Shown here piece by piece: positions 26,185 through 46,547 of a stretch of DNA of 64,000 nucleotides (its first letter is position 1; every line of letters starts with the position of its first letter). A program made the translations under genes and the position numbers. The stretch is from Acidimicrobiaceae bacterium (GTDB lineage: Bacteria > Actinomycetota > Acidimicrobiia > Acidimicrobiales > Aldehydirespiratoraceae), in contig JAPOYA010000057.1 in NCBI GenBank assembly GCA_026706815.1, forward strand, positions 62,001 to 126,000, given 5' to 3'. The notes below the pieces were generated by a model. It did no database searches, had not been told where the DNA came from, and was given only the letters and a program-made list of their open reading frames with translations.

Positions 26185-26883
26185 ATGGTTGCCGCCGCTC
26201 GACCGCTTCGCCAGTCGAACAAACACAACGCCCCGGGATTGCGGTTCGAAAAAGACTTGTGGGCGGCGGGCAATCAGGTGGTTGCGGGTATTGATGAGGT
26301 GGGGCGCGGATCATGGGCCGGACCGCTCACGCTTGCAGCGGTTGTAGTCCCGCAGAACAAACGGCTCTACAAGGTCCGTGATTCCAAAATGCTGACCGAA
26401 GCCGAGCGTGAAGTGATGCACGACCGGATCCTGGACTGGGCCAGCGGGGTTTCCGTCGCGCATGCCAGCCGGCAAGAATGCGACGAACTTGGCATGTCGG
26501 CAGCGCAGAAGCTTGCTGCCCAACGGGCCCTGAACGGTCTAGGTGAGCCGGTCGACCATGTTCTCGTGGACGGGAATTGGGACTTTGTGGAGTCGGTTCC
26601 GACCACCAGGATCGTCAAAGGCGACGCGGTGAGCCTGTCGGTCGCTGCTGCCTCGATCGTGGCGAAGGTCACCCGTGATCGGATCATGGGTGAGGCGGAC
26701 CGGCACTACCCGGCGTTCGGATTCGCCGGCAACAAGGGTTATCCGTGTCCCCGCCACAAAGCTGCGCTGGCGGCCTACGGCCCCACAGCGGTGCATCGGC
26801 GCAGCTGGATTTTCATGGACGGCCTGCGCTGGACTGCCGTGCCCCGCGTAGTAGAGGACAGCCCCCAGCCAAGCCTCTTCTGA
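26185..26883 (+). CDS. rnhB: ribonuclease HII
   Basis: RNase HII cleaves RNA embedded in DNA-RNA hybrids and single misincorporated ribonucleotides. The acidic residues of the active site lie in AGIDEVGRGSWAGPL (Asp and Glu), LVDGN and in the SVAAASIVAKVTRDR region. The 232-residue length fits. The C-terminal half has HYPAFGFAGNKGYPCPRH, typical of the family. The start is at ATG 26185 on promoter spacing. Confidence 0.95.
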   Translation: MVAAARPLRQSNKHNAPGLRFEKDLWAAGNQVVAGIDEVGRGSWAGPLTLAAVVVPQNKRLYKVRDSKMLTEAEREVMHDRILDWASGVSVAHASRQECDELGMSAAQKLAAQRALNGLGEPVDHVLVDGNWDFVESVPTTRIVKGDAVSLSVAAASIVAKVTRDRIMGEADRHYPAFGFAGNKGYPCPRHKAALAAYGPTAVHRRSWIFMDGLRWTAVPRVVEDSPQPSLF

Positions 26884-37216: not shown

Positions 37217-39244
37217 TCAGACGGGTAGTTCGTGTCGCGTCGCTGCGACTGCGAACTTCAGCTTCTTGTTCGGCGACATCGATGCGAACGGGTTGATCTT
37301 GAGTTCGTAGTTCTTCGGCGCTATCTCAAGTTCGAAGTGGTGGGCGACCAATAGGGCGTTGAGAGCCATGTGCAACTCCGTCCAACGCGAGCCGAGGCAG
37401 GTGTGTGTTCCCAGACCGTAGGGCGCGTAGCCGCTGCCGAGGTGTTCCTTGCGCGGGTTGGAGTAGCGGTCGATGTCGAAGGTGAAAGGATCCGGGAAGA
37501 TATCACTCATGTAGTGCGTCGCAGTGGTGCCGATGAGAATTCTTGAACCTAGGGGCAGTTCGTAACCTTCGACGGTGACGGCATTCATCACGTTCCGGAT
37601 AGACATCGGGACTATCGGATAGAGCCGCATGCACTCCATGATGAAGCGGCGAGTGACGTCGATCGATTCTGCGGTGATCATGTCGGGGTCAGGGTCGCCG
37701 TTGGCGAAGAGAGCGTCCGCCTCGGCGCGGATCTTCTGGTGAAACTCCGGCTGCGCGAGCATCGAATAGAGGATGAAGCTCACCTGGTCACCCATATACA
37801 TGCTGGCGAGCAGCGCCGCCGAGAGCGCGAAACTCATATTCGACTCGGGAAGGAACTGGCGGTCCGCCGCGTGCATGCTCAAAAGGTCATCGGCGAAGTC
37901 CTGAGGACAACCAGCCCGCTGGGCTGGCGTGTGGACACTCAGGACCCGATCCGTTATTTTGTTGATCAGCTTCTTGCGACGCCTCATTCCTGGTGTCTTC
38001 AGCATGAACTTGGGAAGGGTCCTAGAGACATGCGTCTGGAGCGCCCGAGATTTGTAGATGCAAAGATCTTCGATGATGTCTTGGGATTCGACGCTCACAA
38101 ACAACGGGGACATCGCCGAATTGACCAGCAGTCGGCTCAGCTGCACCGCCGGATACTTCTGCCCGACTTCCCAAGTCGCCATGGTCTCGCGTGTGTAGGA
38201 GAGAGCTGGGCCCAACTGCTCTTCCAGCCTCTTTCGGGAATAGCCCGGTTGCAGAGACTTTCTGTAACGGAAGTGATCGGCGCCATCAAGACCAGGCAGG
38301 AGCCCCACTCCGCCGTAGAGCTTCTCAAAGTCCTCCATGTAGTCTCGGGACCTCAGGTAGGTTCGCCCGTGGCGGTGTACCCAGTGGTTCGTCTCGGGCC
38401 CGACGAGGACGATCATGTTCTCTGAGAACGGTGGCCGGATCTCGAACACAGGGCCGTATTCCTCGCGGAGATGTGCGAACAGAGCGGGGATGTTGCCGCT
38501 CCGGACGTGTTCGTTGCGCAGCATCCTCCGCAGCGGGACGACGGGAATGGCCTTGCTCAGAGCTGATTTTGGGAACAGCGGCTTGGCGATGTTCTGGCGG
38601 ACCGCATCGGCGATGGAGCGGCCGATCAAGTCCATCTTTGTGACCTGCTCGACCCGCTCCTCGGACTCTTCGTCGAGTTCGAAGATGTAGCGCAAGACGT
38701 CGCAGGTGTCTATGAGGCAGATGATGATGATGTCTCTCGGATCCGGGATCTCGTTGCTGAAGATGGCTTTGCTGATCCTGGTCTTGACGAATTCGACAGC
38801 AGTGCCCACTTCGGATCCTGCGTGGAAGCCGACCCTCCAGGCGGTTTGGGCCAGCGACCAGAAGTCGCCGTCGTGATGTTGAAGGATGTTCAGGTTGACT
38901 AGGCGGTCCAGAGTCATGTCGATGATCGCCTCGGCGCGGGGAGCGAGGCGTTCAATCCAGTACCGGGCGTTTCGTTGGACCGGTTCGGCTGCGATCGTCT
39001 TGAGGATGGGATCAAGACAGGGGTCACCGGTGGGGGTCTTGTCCAGCAGGATCAGGGACTCCATGTCTGTGTCGATGCGAGCTGAGAGTGACAGTTCAGC
39101 CAGCACGGACCCGACGACGGCACAGTTCAGGCTCCATCCGGGCACTTGCCGAAAATAGCCGCTCTCTTCGTTCAGCAGTGTCAGAACGAGTTCGTCAGGG
39201 AGAGTCAACTGCTCGGTCTTCACACCCTCTCCAGCGCGTGACAT
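37217..39244 (-). CDS. GPP34 (GOLPH3/Vps74-like) domain fused to cytochrome P450
   Basis: The 675-residue protein has two parts. Residues about 10-215 match the GPP34 fold, with LTLPDELVLTLLNEESGYF, VVGSVLAELSLSARID and DKTPTGDPCLDPIL. This is a phosphoinositide/membrane-binding domain in eukaryotic GOLPH3. Residues about 235-675 are a P450, with the ExxR in ECMRLYP and the heme-Cys loop YGLGTHTCLGSRW. The I-helix reads MYMGDQVSF, so the usual oxygen-activating Thr is replaced. There is no N-terminal membrane helix, so the GPP34 part may dock it to the membrane. ATG 39244 follows GAGAGGG; a TTG lies one codon earlier. Confidence 0.88.
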   Translation of the reverse strand: MSRAGEGVKTEQLTLPDELVLTLLNEESGYFRQVPGWSLNCAVVGSVLAELSLSARIDTDMESLILLDKTPTGDPCLDPILKTIAAEPVQRNARYWIERLAPRAEAIIDMTLDRLVNLNILQHHDGDFWSLAQTAWRVGFHAGSEVGTAVEFVKTRISKAIFSNEIPDPRDIIIICLIDTCDVLRYIFELDEESEERVEQVTKMDLIGRSIADAVRQNIAKPLFPKSALSKAIPVVPLRRMLRNEHVRSGNIPALFAHLREEYGPVFEIRPPFSENMIVLVGPETNHWVHRHGRTYLRSRDYMEDFEKLYGGVGLLPGLDGADHFRYRKSLQPGYSRKRLEEQLGPALSYTRETMATWEVGQKYPAVQLSRLLVNSAMSPLFVSVESQDIIEDLCIYKSRALQTHVSRTLPKFMLKTPGMRRRKKLINKITDRVLSVHTPAQRAGCPQDFADDLLSMHAADRQFLPESNMSFALSAALLASMYMGDQVSFILYSMLAQPEFHQKIRAEADALFANGDPDPDMITAESIDVTRRFIMECMRLYPIVPMSIRNVMNAVTVEGYELPLGSRILIGTTATHYMSDIFPDPFTFDIDRYSNPRKEHLGSGYAPYGLGTHTCLGSRWTELHMALNALLVAHHFELEIAPKNYELKINPFASMSPNKKLKFAVAATRHELPV

Positions 39245-39343
39245 CAATTCTGCCCTCTCGTTTGTGTGCCGCGAACTGTATCCGTTGCATCCACTCGTGT
39301 AAAACAGGCGACCTGCTCAGGTCACCGCCTTCTGGCCTGCACG

Positions 39344-40918: not shown

Positions 40919-43339
40919 ATGCCCCGACAACTCGAATTCGATCCCAGCTACGCCCGCGAAGTCGTCGATGTGCCCGTTGCCGCCGAGATGAGCGAGTCGT
41001 TTCTCGCCTACTCGCTCAGCGTCATCACCTCACGGGCCATCCCCGACGTGAGAGACGGTCTCAAACCGGTGCAGCGCCGGATCCTCTGGTCGATGCTGCA
41101 GATGGGGATTCGCCCCGGCACACCGTTCCGCAAATCGGCCCGCATCGTCGGCGACACCATGGGTCGTTATCACCCCCACGGCGACTCCGCCATCTACGAC
41201 ACCCTGGTGCGGATGGGACAGGACTTCTCGCGGATGCTCCCGTTCATCGACCCGCAGGGAAACTTCGGTTCGCTCGACGATCCGCCGGCTGCTTCGCGCT
41301 ACACCGAATGCCGCCTTGCCGAAGCAGCCATGGACATGGTCCGCGAGCTCGACGAAGACACTGTCGACTTCCGCTCCACCTATGATGGCGAAGGCGAAGA
41401 ACCAGCAGTGTTGCCTGCCGCGGTGCCCAACATCATCGTCAACGGCACCAGCGGAATCGCAGTGGGAATGGCGACCAACATGGCCCCGCACAACCTGCGC
41501 GAAGTGGCCGAGCTGGTCCGGCTGGTGATGACCAGACGGCGCCCCAAACCGACGATCGAAGAGATTATGAGAGTGCTCCCGGGTCCTGACTTCCCGTCGG
41601 GAGGCACGGTGGTCGACGACGGTCTGCGCGATGCGTATGAAACGGGGCGCGGATCGTTCCGCATCCGCGCCAGGGCCCATGTCGAGCAGGTCACCCGCTC
41701 CCGCCAAGCGGTGATTGTCACTGAGTTGCCCTACCTCGTGGGCCCTGAGCGGGTAATCAGCAAAGTCCAAGAACTCGCCAACAGCGGCAGACTCGCCGGA
41801 GTGGCGGGCATCGCCGACTTGAGCGACATCGACGGTCTGCGCATCCAGATCGACCTGAAACCCGGAGTCAACCCACAGGTCGCGCTCCAGGACATGTACC
41901 GACTGACCCCGCTCGAAGAGACCTTCGGCGTCAACAATGTGGTTCTGGTCGACGGGGTGCCGACCACCCTCGGGATCTACGACCTGTGCCGTCTCTACAT
42001 CGAGCATCGCCTCGAAGTCGTCGTCCGCCGCACCCGGCACCGCCTCGCCAAAGCACAGGATCGCCTGCACATTCTTGAGGGTCTGCTGGTCGCGCTCGAG
42101 TCCGTAGACGAGGTCGTTGCAATCATCCGCGGCTCTCAAGATGCGGCTGAGGCCCGAGCGAAGCTGATCGAGCGCTTCTTGCTGACAGAGGTCCAGGCGG
42201 CGCACATCCTCGATATGCCGCTGCGCAGACTCACGGCCCTGGCGAAACTCGAACTCGAAGAAGAAGCCACCAGTCTGCGGATCAATATTGCCGAGTATCA
42301 CAAGCTTCTCGACTCAGAGACCAGGCGTCGGACTCTGGTCCTCAAAGAACTCGACGAACTCGCCGACAGACACGGAGTCGCACGGCGGGCTGAGATTGTC
42401 GACGCAGACAGCATCGTCGTGTACGAACAGCCGGCGCCCGACGATACGGCGCCTGACGGCGTCGACGAACCGTGTCTGGTGACCCTGTCCACATCGGGCA
42501 ACCTCGGGCGTGCCCCGACCAACGGTGCGAGAAGGGCGACGGCAGGTCGCCACGATCTGATCGCGGCGCGCGCCATGACCACCACGGGCGCCGAGATAAT
42601 GGCAGTGACATCGGAGGGTCGGGTAATTGCGGTACGGGTGCAGGAAGTCCCCGATGCTGCGGGCCGGGCACGCGGAGTGCCGGCCGGCGTGCTGCTCGGG
42701 CTCAACAGAGGCGAGATGGTCCTGGCGCTGCTCACCGACGGTGACGAACGTCTAGTACTGGTCACCGCCAACGGTGTCGTGAAGCGACTGACCCTCGGCG
42801 AGGTGTTGAGCACGAGATCGTCGGCAACGGTCATCTCGTTGAAGGGCGCCGATCGGGTGGTTGCCGCGTTTCGCGCTCCTTTGGGAGTTGACATCGCCTT
42901 GGTCGCTTCTGACGGCCAGGTTCTGCGCACGCCCGTGGACGGAATCAACGACCAGGGCCGGGGTGCGAGCGGTGTGGCCGGGATGAGACTGCTCGGCGGA
43001 GCAAAGGTCGTGGGCGCAGACGTGTTGCTCGGCGATGGCGTTGCGCTGACGGTCACCAGTGGTTGCGGAGCAAAGGCCACGCCATTCGGCGACCTGCTTG
43101 CCAAGGGTCGGGGCGGTCAGGGTGTGCGCATCGCCAAGTTGGCCGGTGGTGAGACCGTGACGGGCACTTGGTTCGGCCCGGCGGCGATGACAGACGTCTA
43201 TGCGCTTATGGCCGACTACGACGATCCCCGCAAGCTCGACCCCAACCCTGTCGCATTCAATGTCGACCCGAGCGCACGTGATCTGGTGCCGAGTCGAACT
43301 GAGCGCCAGATCATGGTGATCGGAGACGCCCGCTGGTAA
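40919..43339 (+). CDS. type IIA DNA topoisomerase subunit A (ParC/GyrA-like)
   Basis: The 806-residue subunit cuts and rejoins DNA in partnership with the ATPase encoded at 44460. The catalytic Tyr is Y128 in AASRYTE. The quinolone-interacting helix HPHGDSAIYD keeps S90 and D94. The QDFSRMLPFIDPQGNFGSLDDPPA loop and the RRRPKPTIEEIMRVLPGPDFPSGG segment resemble the second, topoisomerase IV-like pair of Actinobacteria more than GyrA. The C-terminal blades have a weak GyrA-box-like KGRGGQG. No symbol is given because gyrase or topo IV activity cannot be decided here. Confidence 0.85.
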   Translation: MPRQLEFDPSYAREVVDVPVAAEMSESFLAYSLSVITSRAIPDVRDGLKPVQRRILWSMLQMGIRPGTPFRKSARIVGDTMGRYHPHGDSAIYDTLVRMGQDFSRMLPFIDPQGNFGSLDDPPAASRYTECRLAEAAMDMVRELDEDTVDFRSTYDGEGEEPAVLPAAVPNIIVNGTSGIAVGMATNMAPHNLREVAELVRLVMTRRRPKPTIEEIMRVLPGPDFPSGGTVVDDGLRDAYETGRGSFRIRARAHVEQVTRSRQAVIVTELPYLVGPERVISKVQELANSGRLAGVAGIADLSDIDGLRIQIDLKPGVNPQVALQDMYRLTPLEETFGVNNVVLVDGVPTTLGIYDLCRLYIEHRLEVVVRRTRHRLAKAQDRLHILEGLLVALESVDEVVAIIRGSQDAAEARAKLIERFLLTEVQAAHILDMPLRRLTALAKLELEEEATSLRINIAEYHKLLDSETRRRTLVLKELDELADRHGVARRAEIVDADSIVVYEQPAPDDTAPDGVDEPCLVTLSTSGNLGRAPTNGARRATAGRHDLIAARAMTTTGAEIMAVTSEGRVIAVRVQEVPDAAGRARGVPAGVLLGLNRGEMVLALLTDGDERLVLVTANGVVKRLTLGEVLSTRSSATVISLKGADRVVAAFRAPLGVDIALVASDGQVLRTPVDGINDQGRGASGVAGMRLLGGAKVVGADVLLGDGVALTVTSGCGAKATPFGDLLAKGRGGQGVRIAKLAGGETVTGTWFGPAAMTDVYALMADYDDPRKLDPNPVAFNVDPSARDLVPSRTERQIMVIGDARW

Positions 43340-43373: not shown

Positions 43374-44390
43374 TCAGGTGAATTGATCGAGCGCCTCGAT
43401 GATCCGCTGTTGTTGAGCGGAGTCGAAGCCGTTGAAAGGCCGGGTGCCTTGGGTCAGGTCGGCGTTGAGCAGGATCATCGAACTGTTGGTGCTGATCCCG
43501 TATTGCCGCCAGGTTGTGAACGACGGATCCCACACCATGGTCGGGGTCGTGACGTTGAGGTCGGTGACGAAGCGGAGCGCGTAGTTGAAGTCGTCCTGGG
43601 CGCCTACGCCGATGACCTGGATTTCGTTGGTGTGCTCTCGAGCGAACTGCTCGACGTGCGGCGCCTCTCGCCGACACGTCGGTCAATGAGGCGCCCAGAA
43701 CCACAGGAGCACCGGACGGTCGCCGTCGACAGCGTCGGCCAGAGAGGTTATGGACCCGTCGGCGACGTTCAGGACCTCGATCCTCCGCCGGTCGCTGTCG
43801 GGTTGCAGCAAAGACATGTTGGCCGCTGCTTGCGCGAGGATCTCCTCGCGGGAGAGGGTTTTCACAGTCGTCGTCGTTGTCGGTGGTGATGTGGTCGTCG
43901 TCGTTGTGGTCGTGGTCGTCGTTGTGGTTGTCGTGGTTGTCGGTGGTGCTGTGGTCGTCGTTGTCGATTCTTCTTCGGTTGTGGTTTCCTCGGCGACGGC
44001 TGGTGCGGTCGTGGTTGCCGGGACGTCGACTGGTGGTTCCTCTGAGGCATTCGACTCTTCGGCGGTCGCGGCGATTGCTGTGGTTGCGTCAGCTTCAGTT
44101 GTCTCGGGTTCTTCCGCCGGTGTCGCGGTCTCCGTGGGCGCAGGTTCAGGTTCGGACGTGTCGCCGGTGGCGGTGCCATCGGCACTCGACGCTGGTGCCG
44201 GTGTTGCTGTGGCCTCGGCTGGTTCGGGTTCAGGCATGGACTCGAGTTCAAGAGGCGGGAGCGTTGTGGTTGCGAAGACAGCGTCCGTGGACACCTGTGT
44301 CGAAGAATCGCCTCCGCCGCAGGCCGCGGCCAAACTCGCGAAGCAGAGCGTGACTGCTAGTGTGAACGCAGGTGGGCGCTGGGGACTCAA
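43374..44390 (-). CDS. TlpA/thioredoxin-like lipoprotein, probable selenoprotein (UxxC)
   Basis: Read through one in-frame UGA (43683-43685), the frame gives 338 residues. A signal peptide with lipobox-like LAAAC is followed by a long Thr/Glu/Pro/Ala-rich linker (about 25-180) with a near-pure poly-Thr run, then a thioredoxin domain. The UGA codon is residue 236, in WFWAPH-U-PT-C, exactly at the first Cys of the CXXC motif. Beyond it the domain continues to FT at 338 with normal codon use. Conventional gene calling would stop at 235 residues and lose the active site. A SECIS-like hairpin follows. If not selenocysteine, it is a nonsense mutation. The expected cis-Pro before the last strand is replaced by Ser. 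Confidence 0.8.
43652..43681 (-). other. SECIS-like stem-loop after the UGA codon
   Basis: Starting two bases after UGA, CGACGUG pairs with CACGUCG (7 bp). A single U is then bulged on the 5' side, and CGGCG pairs with CGCCG (5 bp) around an AGAGG pentaloop. A bulged U about five base pairs below an apical loop that has G in its first two positions, about 16 nt from UGA, matches the bacterial selenocysteine insertion element layout. It is wholly within the coding sequence. Confidence 0.7.
43866..43970. repeat. low-complexity poly-Thr coding repeat
   Basis: A degenerate GTC/GTG/GTT trinucleotide tract on the plus strand encodes about 30 Thr with a few Pro on the minus strand, forming an extracellular linker in the thioredoxin lipoprotein. 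Confidence 0.8.
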
Positions 44391-44459
44391 GGACCCAATG
44401 TTACCCGAATCCGCTTCGCTGTCACCTGTGACTAGTACGGTGTTGCGAACACTCGTTCG

Positions 44460-46547
44460 TTGACGGTGGTCACCCCTAGTTCGCTGGATTCAATCTTGGC
44501 TGCAAACACTTCAACCGCATACGACGCTGACGCGATCGAGACCCTCGAGGGGATGGAAGCCGTCCGCAAACGGCCGGGCATGTACATCGGCGGCACTGGC
44601 AGCGCCGGTCTCATGCACCTCGTCTGGGAGTTGATCGACAATGCCGTCGATGAGGCGGCCGCCGGGTTCGCCGACAGGGTCGACGTCACCCTGCACCGTG
44701 ACAGATCGGTGGAGGTCAGTGACAACGGCCGCGGCATTCCCATCGGTCGTCACGCCGAACGCAAGGTCTCTGCGCTGGAGGTGGTGTTCACGGAATTGCA
44801 TGCGGGAGGAAAGTTCGGAGGCGGCGCGTATTCGTCGTCGGGCGGTCTGCATGGAGTCGGCGCATCGGTCGTCAACGCTCTGGCCACCAAGCTGACAGTC
44901 GAAGTCGATCGTGAAGGCGGTACCCATGTGCTGGGTTTCGAGGACCGTGTGGCCGGCCAGTTCAACGGTTCCGACCCGTTCAAACCCGGTCATCAGTTGA
45001 AGAAGACCAAGCGGGTCTCCAAGAACAAGACGGGCACGCGGGTGCGCTTCTGGCCTGATTTCGAGATCTTCGATCCTGATGCCCGAGTCGACTTCGACGA
45101 GGTCTGCGATCGTGTGACCCAGGCCTGTTTCCTAGTGCCGGGCATGCGGGCGTCGGTCACCGACAAGCGGGTAGGCGGTGTCCCTGAGCCGTTCGTGTTC
45201 ACGAGTCCGGGCGGCCTCGCCGACTTGGTCGCCCACCTCTCAGACGCCCCGCCCGTGTGTGGCGTCATCACCGGCAACGGCATCGACACGTTCGTCGAGA
45301 AGGTGCCCGTCAACAAGAAGATGACCGACGTTGAGCGTGAATGCACCGTTGACGTCGCGCTGCGCTGGGTCGAAGGCTTCGACACGAAGGTGCTGTCGTT
45401 CGTCAACACCATCCCCACCCCTCAGGGCGGAACTCATCTGGCGGGATTCGACAAGGCGCTGACACGGGTGATCAACAACGTCGTCCTCAAGGACCACCAC
45501 AAGCTCGCCAAACTCGCAAAACAGAACAAGCACAAAGCAGTCAAGGACGATGTGCAGGAGGGGCTCGTCGCGGCGTTGAAGGTGACGTTCGCAGAACCGC
45601 AGTTCCGCGGGCAGACCAAACAGGAACTGGGCACTCCCGCGATCGACGGGATCGTCAGCCGGGTCGTGTACGAACAACTCAAGGAGTGGTTCGAGCCCGG
45701 TGGCGGGCCCCGCACGCACGTCAAGGCGATCGCCGACAAGCTGTCGAACGCGGTTCAGAACCGGGTCGCTTCCAAGACCCTGCTCGAGAACCAGCGCAAG
45801 GCCGCAAGCCTCGGATCAACCGGGATGCCCCAGAAGCTCGCCGACTGCCGGATCCACGGGATGGACGCCGAGTTGATTCTGGTGGAGGGGGACTCCGCGG
45901 CCGGTCCGGCCAAGAGGGGCCGCGACTCTGAGACGATGGCGATCCTGCCGCTGAGGGGGAAGGTGGTCAACGCCCACAAAGCCAGCGCGAAGCAGGTGCT
46001 CGACAACGCGGAGGCGCGGGCGTTGTTCACCGCTATGGGCGCGGGAGCGGGCGATGAGTTCAACATCGAGGACGCCCGCTATGGCCGCATAGTCATCTTG
46101 TGCGACGCCGATGTCGACGGCAGTCATATTCGCTGCCTGCTGCTGACGCTGATCTACAAGTACATGCGGCCGATGCTGGAGGCGGGCCGGGTCTTCGCGG
46201 CCCAACCACCCTTGTTCACCACCAAGATCGGAGATGAGACATATCGGGTCTACTCCGAAGAGGAAAAAGAGCAGGCAACCGACGAGCTGTGCAAGGGCAA
46301 CCGCCGCCGTGAGAACGTCAAATGGCAGCGCTTCAAAGGACTCGGCGAAATGAACGTCGAGGAACTGCGCCACTGCGCACTTGATCCGAAGACTCGAACA
46401 CTCCGCCGGCTCACCATGGACGACGGCGCCCAGGCATCAGAAGCCCTGGAGATGTTCGAGGTGCTGATGGGGACCGACGTTTCCAGCCGACGCGATTTCC
46501 TTGTGCGAAACAGTGCTGTGGTGGACAGCTCAACCCTCGATATCTAA
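44460..46547 (+). CDS. type IIA DNA topoisomerase subunit B (ParE/GyrB-like)
   Basis: The 695-residue ATPase subunit has the GHKL motifs EGMEAVRKRPGMYIGG, VWELIDNAVDEA and DNGRGIP, the GGLHGVGASVVNALA loop, and the TOPRIM motifs EGDSAAGPAKRG and CDADVDGSHIRCLLL. The C-terminal FKGLGEMNVEELRHCALDP is typical. Its length is nearer ParE than long GyrB. The TTG at 44460 is used; a GTG two codons later is possible. Its partner is encoded at 40919, separated by the thioredoxin gene on the opposite strand. Confidence 0.88.
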   Translation: MTVVTPSSLDSILAANTSTAYDADAIETLEGMEAVRKRPGMYIGGTGSAGLMHLVWELIDNAVDEAAAGFADRVDVTLHRDRSVEVSDNGRGIPIGRHAERKVSALEVVFTELHAGGKFGGGAYSSSGGLHGVGASVVNALATKLTVEVDREGGTHVLGFEDRVAGQFNGSDPFKPGHQLKKTKRVSKNKTGTRVRFWPDFEIFDPDARVDFDEVCDRVTQACFLVPGMRASVTDKRVGGVPEPFVFTSPGGLADLVAHLSDAPPVCGVITGNGIDTFVEKVPVNKKMTDVERECTVDVALRWVEGFDTKVLSFVNTIPTPQGGTHLAGFDKALTRVINNVVLKDHHKLAKLAKQNKHKAVKDDVQEGLVAALKVTFAEPQFRGQTKQELGTPAIDGIVSRVVYEQLKEWFEPGGGPRTHVKAIADKLSNAVQNRVASKTLLENQRKAASLGSTGMPQKLADCRIHGMDAELILVEGDSAAGPAKRGRDSETMAILPLRGKVVNAHKASAKQVLDNAEARALFTAMGAGAGDEFNIEDARYGRIVILCDADVDGSHIRCLLLTLIYKYMRPMLEAGRVFAAQPPLFTTKIGDETYRVYSEEEKEQATDELCKGNRRRENVKWQRFKGLGEMNVEELRHCALDPKTRTLRRLTMDDGAQASEALEMFEVLMGTDVSSRRDFLVRNSAVVDSSTLDI

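What the first reader, a model, noticed from the sequence alone, without database searches (positions are those of the whole stretch)
43374..44390. Probable selenoprotein: thioredoxin-like lipoprotein with UGA in place of the first CXXC cysteine
The minus-strand frame stops at UGA (43683-43685) after WFWAPH, then continues in the same frame as Pro-Thr-Cys-Arg-Arg-Glu-Ala-Pro and on for 102 codons of recognisable TlpA-like domain to a real stop at 43374. UGA therefore sits at the redox-active first position of UxxC. A chance nonsense change at exactly this residue, with an intact downstream domain and a hairpin next to it, is unlikely. Conventional calling would give a 235-residue protein without an active site. 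I am not aware of a described selenoprotein with this lipoprotein/poly-Thr layout, but I cannot search for one.
Basis: partly seen in the sequence, partly recalled or inferred. Interest (0 to 1): 0.93.

Follow-up and report, generated by a model that had tools for sequence, protein, structure and literature searches.

The report
Actinobacterial selenocysteine surface-thioredoxin family
A likely actinobacterial genome holds a gene for a predicted cell-surface thioredoxin whose in-frame UGA codon is likely read as selenocysteine at its predicted active site; the same UGA, and an RNA hairpin behind it that probably signals this, recur in relatives of the same phylum.

Summary
The minus-strand frame 44390-43374 runs through UGA (43685-43683) at the first position of a UxxC motif into an intact redoxin domain. 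The genome has selA, selB, selD and a 92-nt tRNA-Sec. Of the 53 matches with E <= 1e-20 in 81 related genomes, 50 have TGA at this column. All 53 genomes with a listed TGA-bearing match have selA; 13 of 81 show no selA. Codons after the UGA are under purifying selection.

In 67 contexts it forms 399 of 402 pairs, against 297 +/- 7 after protein-preserving codon shuffles; nine Cys relatives form 1-3 of 6. It fits the published bacterial SECIS model. The adjacent hairpin is real but looser. A sister subfamily has its hairpin about 8 nt nearer the UGA.

Nearest solved structures are DsbF and DsbE. The protein is predicted to be a lipid-anchored extracytoplasmic thiol-disulfide oxidoreductase. UxxC redoxin selenoproteins are a catalogued kind; this is an actinobacterial variant with a two-hairpin signal. 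Selenium insertion itself is untested.

The parts
43374..44390 (-). Predicted selenoprotein gene, TTG start, 338 codons with UGA read as Sec, ends at TGA 43376-43374
   Evidence: dN/dS 0.20-0.33 after the UGA
43683..43685 (-). In-frame UGA, predicted Sec236, first position of the UxxC motif
   Evidence: TGA in 50 of the 53 matches with E <= 1e-20
43674..43676 (-). Cys239 codon of UPTC, predicted resolving cysteine
   Evidence: invariant in the 43-row alignment
43638..43654 (-). Hairpin 2, likely SECIS: UCGAGC-AGUUC-GCUCGA, 6 bp, loop starts 34 nt after the UGA, -8.0 kcal/mol
43652..43681 (-). Hairpin 1, GC-rich hairpin directly after the UGA; likely accessory. Its base overlaps hairpin 2 by 3 nt
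   Evidence: its loop lies 14 nt after the UGA, outside the 16-37 nt of the published model
44319..44390 (-). Predicted lipoprotein signal peptide ending in a lipobox-like LAAAC (Cys24)
   Evidence: read by eye; LIAAC in the relative P0003; no signal-peptide program was run
43866..44318 (-). Thr/Ala/Glu/Pro-rich linker, 151 residues, 51 of them Thr
43377..43865 (-). Redoxin (thioredoxin-fold) domain
   Evidence: AlphaFold2 model of residues 170-338, pLDDT 96.2, pTM 0.90; best folds DsbF and DsbE
40919..43339 (+). Flanking gyrase/topoisomerase IV subunit A gene, convergent; conserved context only
44460..46547 (+). Flanking gyrase subunit B gene, divergent; conserved context only

Best explanation
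The gene encodes a predicted membrane-anchored thioredoxin-fold lipoprotein in which the in-frame UGA is likely decoded as selenocysteine at the first position of the UxxC motif, probably directed by a conserved base-paired RNA element in the following codons. Shown: the open frame, the conserved UGA, the selection on the codons behind it, the covarying hairpin 2 with its near-fixed loop, and the presence of selA, selB, selD and tRNA-Sec. Inferred: SelB carrying Sec-tRNA binds hairpin 2 (loop AGUUC) and delivers Sec when the UGA reaches the A site. Inferred: hairpin 1 folds up the long spacer so that hairpin 2 comes near the ribosome; its lower stem, which shares bases with hairpin 2, would be melted inside the ribosome at that moment. 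Inferred: the protein is exported, lipidated at Cys24 and held off the membrane by the Thr-rich linker, and works as a thiol-disulfide reductase/isomerase outside the cytoplasm, with Sec as attacking and Cys239 as resolving residue, recharged by the CcdA-type transporter.
For: Machinery: tRNA-Sec 64.7 bits, anticodon TCA; selA 400 bits and selB 302 bits side by side; selD 361 bits, itself with an in-frame TGA in SHGAG-U-GCK. Conservation: TGA in 50 of the 53 matches with E <= 1e-20 among 81 genomes. Co-occurrence: 53 of 53 genomes with a listed TGA-bearing match have a selA match, 68 of 81 genomes overall (counted by hand); chance 1e-7 if genomes were independent, which they are not. Sec against Cys: hairpin 2 has all 6 pairs in 64 of 67 subfamily-A TGA contexts and 1-3 of 6 in nine Cys relatives. 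G008 has TGT at this column, no selA match, and its two tRNA-Sec candidates are tRNA-Gly and tRNA-Ser. RNA: subfamily A 399 of 402 pairs against 296.7 +/- 7.0 in 2000 synonymous resamplings (max 322), loop beginning AG in 67 of 67; sister subfamily B 201 of 224 against 155.9 +/- 5.0 (max 176), loop [GA]GUC in 32 of 32. Cells with both sides changed: 24 (A) and 20 (B) against shuffled means 6.2 and 5.6; RNAalifold finds hairpin 2 unprompted. Published bSECIS limits (PMC13188914, section 5) all met: 5-nt loop, 6 bp, G in loop position 2, spacing 34 nt, -8.0 kcal/mol. Selection after the UGA: dN/dS 0.20-0.33. Fold: DsbF 3ios, DsbE 1lu4. Electron supply: a CcdA/DsbD_TM match, no VKOR match.
Against: No protein or selenium data exist here. 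In the single window sequence hairpin 2 alone is not extreme: 2.5% of synonymous versions hold a model-conforming hairpin as stable; the case rests on the family. Two covariation measures do not clearly exceed shuffles: number of pairs with a double change (A 2 against 2.0, 486 of 500 shuffles as high; B 5 against 2.7, 14 of 500) and further pair types (A 43 of 500, B 75 of 500 as high). Hairpin 1, the more stable, overlaps hairpin 2 and wins in the 60-nt minimum-energy fold. Among 13 named loci found, 6 have TGA and 7 have Cys. G067 has selA and a tRNA-Sec yet Cys forms, so UGA does not follow the machinery strictly; G016 has UGA and selA but no tRNA-Sec match (83% complete). G008 is 91% complete, and selB and selD were not searched for there. 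The CcdA gene lies beside a Cys redoxin, which may be its own partner. Export and lipidation are by eye.
Confidence: 0.93

Rival explanations
1. The UGA is an ordinary stop: the gene is a decayed copy, or makes a 235-residue Thr-rich lipoprotein without an active site.
For: Public entries of relatives read it so: P0002, P0003 and P0008 end exactly at WFWAPH, and the next codon of P0002 is TGA in the DNA held (the DNA of the other two is not held). UGA does serve as a stop in this genome, for example of selA. Some relatives are decayed (L032, L078, L164).
Against: TGA at the column in 50 of the 53 matches with E <= 1e-20, purifying selection after it, covarying hairpin 2, redoxin domain spanning it.
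Confidence: 0.02
2. The UGA is read through by a near-cognate ordinary tRNA or by a reassigned code (for example UGA as Trp or Cys), without selenium.
For: Nothing here measures the inserted residue.
Against: Genes such as gyrA and gyrB are found whole under the standard code, and TGA ends selA and the GPP34/P450 gene. The Sec machinery is complete, TGA-bearing genes go with selA, the replacing residue in relatives is Cys, and the hairpin goes with TGA.
Confidence: 0.03
3. The selenoprotein is real but the functional SECIS is hairpin 1 (or both hairpins as one unit), and hairpin 2 does something else.
For: Hairpin 1 is the more stable, sits directly after the UGA, and in subfamily A its region is more stable than the protein requires (mean -11.2 against -7.74 +/- 0.35 kcal/mol).
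Against: Hairpin 1 has no fixed loop and a shifting register, so RNAalifold does not keep it; its region is not more stable than expected in subfamily B (-6.34 against -6.96 +/- 0.47); its loop lies 14 nt after the UGA, outside the published 16-37 nt. Hairpin 2 is missing in nine of nine Cys relatives tested (1-3 of 6 pairs).
Confidence: 0.12
4. The protein works as an oxidant that forms disulfides in exported proteins, as I recall is reported for mycobacterial DsbE/DsbF, rather than as a reductase.
For: Nearest solved relatives are DsbF and DsbE.
Against: No VKOR match and one CcdA-type match in the genome; DsbB was not searched for, so this is weak.
Confidence: 0.35

Closest known systems
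Redoxin family selenoprotein (PF08534, UxxC, HEU0032618.1) and thiol-disulfide isomerase-like selenoprotein (cd02966, UxxC) in the catalogue of PMC13188914
   Same: Redoxin/thioredoxin fold and a single Sec at the first position of UxxC.
   Different: The review's text does not contain Actinobacteri- or Actinomycetota. The representative sequences could not be seen, so identity with this family is not excluded.
Mycobacterium tuberculosis DsbF (3ios) and DsbE/MPT53 (1lu4)
   Same: Best sequence and fold matches: E 1.2e-12 and 1.3e-9, Foldseek 1.4e-12 and 4.2e-12; WFWxPxCxxC active site.
   Different: They have Cys, not Sec; 24-26% identity in the fold alignment; the window's branch has Ser at the column where subfamily B and other relatives have Pro.
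TlpA/ResA/StoA extracytoplasmic thiol-disulfide oxidoreductases
   Same: Same fold and predicted location.
   Different: No NCBIfam model of these reaches its cut-off (best StoA 35 of 210 bits).
Bacterial SECIS elements (published bSECIS model)
   Same: Small apical loop with G in its first two positions, 6-bp stem, 34-nt spacing, -8.0 kcal/mol.
   Different: A further hairpin without fixed sequence lies between the UGA and the element, which sits near the upper end of the spacing range; the loop begins AG in 67 of 67 contexts.
NCBIfam selenoprotein models WAxxUGC_long (NF041054) and redoxin_TUGYCR (NF053656)
   Same: Weak similarity of a sister subfamily B protein (L110), redoxin fold.
   Different: 19.1 of 300 and 17 of 100 bits for L110; neither is listed for the window protein at E <= 0.1.

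Membership tests
Bacterial selenoprotein | Genome encodes SelA, SelB, SelD and tRNA-Sec | tested here: met
Bacterial selenoprotein | In-frame UGA with Cys at the same column in relatives | tested here: met
   Cys codon in L049, L060, L066 and in L117 (two genes), L119, L121, L123, L124; L116 and L118 are the same genes as L049 and L060 by sequence
Bacterial selenoprotein | Coding constraint continues after the UGA | tested here: met
   dN/dS 0.20-0.33 in 5 of 5 comparisons
Bacterial selenoprotein | SECIS within the published model | tested here: met
   hairpin 2; covariation
Bacterial selenoprotein | Selenium present in the protein | not testable with these tools
   needs 75Se labelling or mass spectrometry
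Redoxin (PF08534) / AhpC-TSA (PF00578) | Curated Pfam score | tested here: met
   42.5 of 26.6 and 42.4 of 26 bits
DsbE, TlpA, ResA, StoA subfamilies (NCBIfam) | NCBIfam curated score | tested here: not met
   all below cut-off; so it may work like them but is not filed as one of them
Thioredoxin-fold oxidoreductase | Proline facing the active site (cis-Pro) | tested here: not met
   Ser in the window and in 25 of 43 aligned rows, Pro in 17, Gln in 1; that this column is the cis-Pro is my reading of the alignment
Bacterial lipoprotein | Signal peptide with lipobox | tested here: inconclusive
   LAAAC read by eye, no predictor run
Catalogued 'Redoxin family' selenoprotein HEU0032618.1 | Sequence similarity to its representative | not tested
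   I did not have that sequence

The most novel reading that the evidence does not exclude
Actinomycetota have evolved their own Sec-insertion signal: a SelB-binding hairpin with an AG[U/G]-type loop set about 34 nt behind the UGA, brought into reach by a second, sequence-free hairpin that folds the spacer away. In the sister subfamily the spacer hairpin is lost and the SelB hairpin sits about 8 nt closer, so the signal has moved through a conserved protein-coding frame. It drives a phylum-wide set of surface selenothioredoxins that annotation cuts off at the UGA.
Probability: 0.4. Interest if true: 0.78.

Novelty: new variant of a known kind. Interest (0 to 1): 0.62.

Why it matters
It adds a predicted extracytoplasmic Sec enzyme family in Actinomycetota, explains truncated public entries (P0002 for certain; P0003 and P0008 probably), and offers dozens of natural variants of one SECIS, with Cys relatives that lack the hairpin and one (G008) in which selA and tRNA-Sec were not found either. 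The two-hairpin layout makes the question of how far, and in what shape, a bacterial SECIS may lie from its UGA directly testable by reporter.

Tried and rejected
Considered and rejected: sequencing error (the UGA recurs in separate assemblies); code reassignment; antisense ORFs on the plus strand at 43383-43889 (not scanned) and 43750-44463 (no Pfam match): dN/dS supports the minus frame. Rfam at gathering scores finds nothing in the window. Hairpin 1 as the main SECIS was my first reading, dropped. The first split into subfamilies (A 51, B 33) put two sequences with an A-type hairpin (L088, L100) into B; one search reassigned by protein motif (A 67, B 32), and L170, still counted in B, forms 6 of 6 A pairs. 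The subfamily-B model R2 gives in this genome one match below E 0.01, at the window locus itself, so no B member is seen here. Passages of PMC2398784, PMC5029168, PMC1088965 and PMC12013277 gave no description of this family. Listings for selenoprotein + Acidimicrobi + thioredoxin (1 paper, on another genus), sponge + selenoprotein + Acidimicrobi (0) and DsbF + DsbE + selenocysteine (0) gave none (open-licence papers only). PMC5029168 does report Sec use in some Actinobacteria, so Sec use in the phylum is not new.

Biases: 60 of the 90 loci were fetched largely because one search listed a TGA in them, so the 84 of 88 distinct contexts with TGA is not an unbiased rate; the 50 of 53 count, chosen by E-value alone, is fairer, and named loci give 6 TGA of 13. 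The listing is cut at its end. Rows dropped: L032 (a second TGA four codons on), L164 (TAG in place of CAG inside hairpin 2), L158 (same context as L059) and other identical contexts; L078 (CGA at the column, another stop upstream) is not a TGA row. L164 was kept, shortened, in the tree. Alignment A1 held 50 of the 51 A contexts (L032 left out), A2 33 of 33, and the protein alignment A3 the window plus 42 of the rows listed (87 references).

Full report
What is there. The minus-strand frame starts at TTG 44390, reaches TGA at 43685-43683 after WFWAPH, and runs on for 102 codons to TGA 43376-43374. Read through, it has 338 residues: a signal-peptide-like start ending in LAAAC (by eye), a 151-residue linker with 51 Thr, and a Redoxin/AhpC-TSA domain over the Pfam cut-offs that spans the TGA. 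It lies between gyrA (convergent) and gyrB (divergent). Both neighbours are found beside the gene in the five genus-mates, and one of them in several other family members (flanks of 1500 nt only).

The organism can make selenoproteins. The 3.04-Mb assembly (95% complete) holds a tRNA-Sec of 92 nt, 64.7 bits, anticodon TCA, selA and selB side by side (400 and 302 bits) and selD (361 bits). SelD itself has an in-frame TGA in SHGAG-U-GCK, with a 7-bp hairpin, loop GGUCG, 32 nt behind the UGA (6.6% of synonymous versions are as stable, so weak alone). TGA is also an ordinary stop here, for instance of selA. The nearest named relatives are Acidimicrobiaceae, Acidimicrobiales and Acidimicrobiia genomes, so the window is most likely from that group.

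The UGA is conserved and the codons after it are selected. In the own genome and 80 relatives, 53 matches have E <= 1e-20; 50 contain a TGA and 3 do not (one in G008, two in G067), and one search places the TGA at this column in those 50. All 53 genomes with a listed TGA-bearing match have a selA match, while 13 of the 81 have none (counted by hand, and the list is cut). The hypergeometric chance is 1e-7, to be taken lightly since genomes are related. Among 13 loci from named genomes 6 have TGA and 7, mostly more distant, have Cys. Over 300 nt after the UGA dN/dS is 0.20 to 0.33 against five genus-mates. Of 7 public proteins found, P0002, P0003 and P0008 end exactly at WFWAPH and four are Cys forms; the codon after P0002 is TGA.

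Sec against Cys. G008 has TGT at the column, no selA match, and its two tRNA-Sec candidates are tRNA-Gly and tRNA-Ser; it is 91% complete, and selB and selD were not searched for there. In a quick tree it groups with UGA forms of its own family (SH-aLRT 84-88, none starred), so Sec to Cys is the likely direction there; the tree has few columns, and its Sec/Cys labels need 7 changes in all. Against a strict rule, G067 has selA and a tRNA-Sec but Cys forms, and G016 has UGA and selA but no tRNA-Sec match in an 83%-complete assembly.

The RNA signal. Aligned without gaps by codon, subfamily A (the window's) keeps a hairpin 31-47 nt after the U of UGA: UCGAGC-AGUUC-GCUCGA in the window (43654-43638). 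Base changes are matched on both sides (A-U to G-C or C-G; C-G to U-A): 24 cells against 6.2 in shuffles, and sliding the partners by 1-3 columns drops pairing from 98.9% to below 50%. The counts of pairs with a double change and of further pair types do not stand out from shuffles (2 against 2.0; 7 against 6.1), since two of the six pairs never vary. RNAalifold finds the hairpin unprompted. With protein sequence held fixed and synonymous codons redrawn, 67 contexts form 399 of 402 pairs against 296.7 +/- 7.0 (maximum 322 in 2000 draws); the loop begins AG in all 67. Subfamily B, the sister group with WFWAPW-U, keeps a hairpin 22-39 nt after the U with loop [GA]GUC in 32 of 32, and 201 of 224 pairs against 155.9 +/- 5.0. 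Both lie within the published bSECIS limits on spacing (34 and 26 nt); for the window all four limits are met. As a control, nine Cys relatives form only 1-3 of the 6 pairs, while the 6 TGA loci from named genomes form 6 of 6.

Two hairpins. The stable hairpin directly after the UGA is also more than the protein requires in subfamily A (mean -11.2 against -7.74 +/- 0.35 kcal/mol) but not in B (-6.34 against -6.96 +/- 0.47). It has no fixed loop or register and lies too close to the UGA for the published model. I read it as a spacer-folding aid to the real SECIS; this is inference. In the window its base overlaps hairpin 2 by three bases, so both cannot be complete at once outside the ribosome, and in the 60-nt minimum-energy fold hairpin 1 wins.

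Spread. Model R1 (subfamily A) matches in 45 of 81 related genomes and in 27 of 396 drawn from the phylum, at E <= 0.001. The weakest of these are not selenocysteine forms for sure: G008, with its Cys gene, is among the 45. The 18 loci newly numbered in the phylum search (best matches) all have TGA at the expected place; one (L158, G054) was already held, and one (L164) has a further stop inside hairpin 2. Many are WFWAPW-U-xxC redoxins with UCGCGC-AGNUN-GCGCG[AG]-type hairpins.

What it likely does. The domain model (pLDDT 96.2, pTM 0.90) matches DsbF and DsbE best, then ResA, TlpA-type and surface lipoprotein thioredoxins; sequence agrees. No NCBIfam model reaches its cut-off. The genome has one CcdA-type match, beside a Cys redoxin, and no VKOR match. 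I therefore favour a reductase or isomerase outside the cytoplasm, recharged through CcdA; this step is inferred and the oxidant reading stays open.

Known or new. A 2026 review (PMC13188914; abstract, section 5, parts 1-2 of section 7 and passages read) lists 119 prokaryotic families/subfamilies, among them a UxxC Redoxin family and a UxxC thiol-disulfide isomerase-like family, and its main text does not contain the words Actinobacteri- or Actinomycetota. I could not see the representative sequences. Sec use in some Actinobacteria is in print (PMC5029168, passages). The protein is thus of a known kind; the actinobacterial lipoprotein form, the two-hairpin signal and its shift between sister subfamilies are what I found no description of in the listings and the passages named.

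Noticed in passing
window 43377-43883 and 42 relatives: The column where DsbF-like relatives have Pro (read as the cis-Pro) is Ser in the window and in 25 of 43 rows (24 Sec forms and one Cys form); an unusual change in a thioredoxin fold.
   Followed up: partly
L042, L044, L045, L046, L047, L051, L052; G007:C1:897037 and 899523: Several related genomes carry two predicted selenoprotein copies near each other; in L042 the second has a long Ala-rich linker.
   Followed up: no
L022 (G000:C7:9952-10875): SelD of this genome is itself a predicted selenoprotein, with a hairpin (loop GGUCG) 32 nt behind its UGA and a smaller hairpin before it.
   Followed up: partly
window 37217-39247, minus strand: One 676-aa ORF with a GPP34 domain (16-217) followed by a cytochrome P450 domain (250-664), an odd fusion.
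   Followed up: no
window 26645-26736: ARAGORN calls a tRNA-Pro (cgg) of 92 nt, long for tRNA-Pro; another tRNA-Pro (cgg) of 77 nt lies in L017. Either unusual or spurious.
   Followed up: no
L032 (G029:C10), L078 (G023:C33), L164 (G234:C79): L032 has a second TGA four codons after the first; L078 has CGA at the Sec column and another stop upstream; L164 has TAG inside hairpin 2. They look decayed.
   Followed up: partly
G000:C37:44240-45211, minus strand: CcdA-type gene next to a redoxin match without in-frame stop, the only other listed match of the window protein in its own genome.
   Followed up: no
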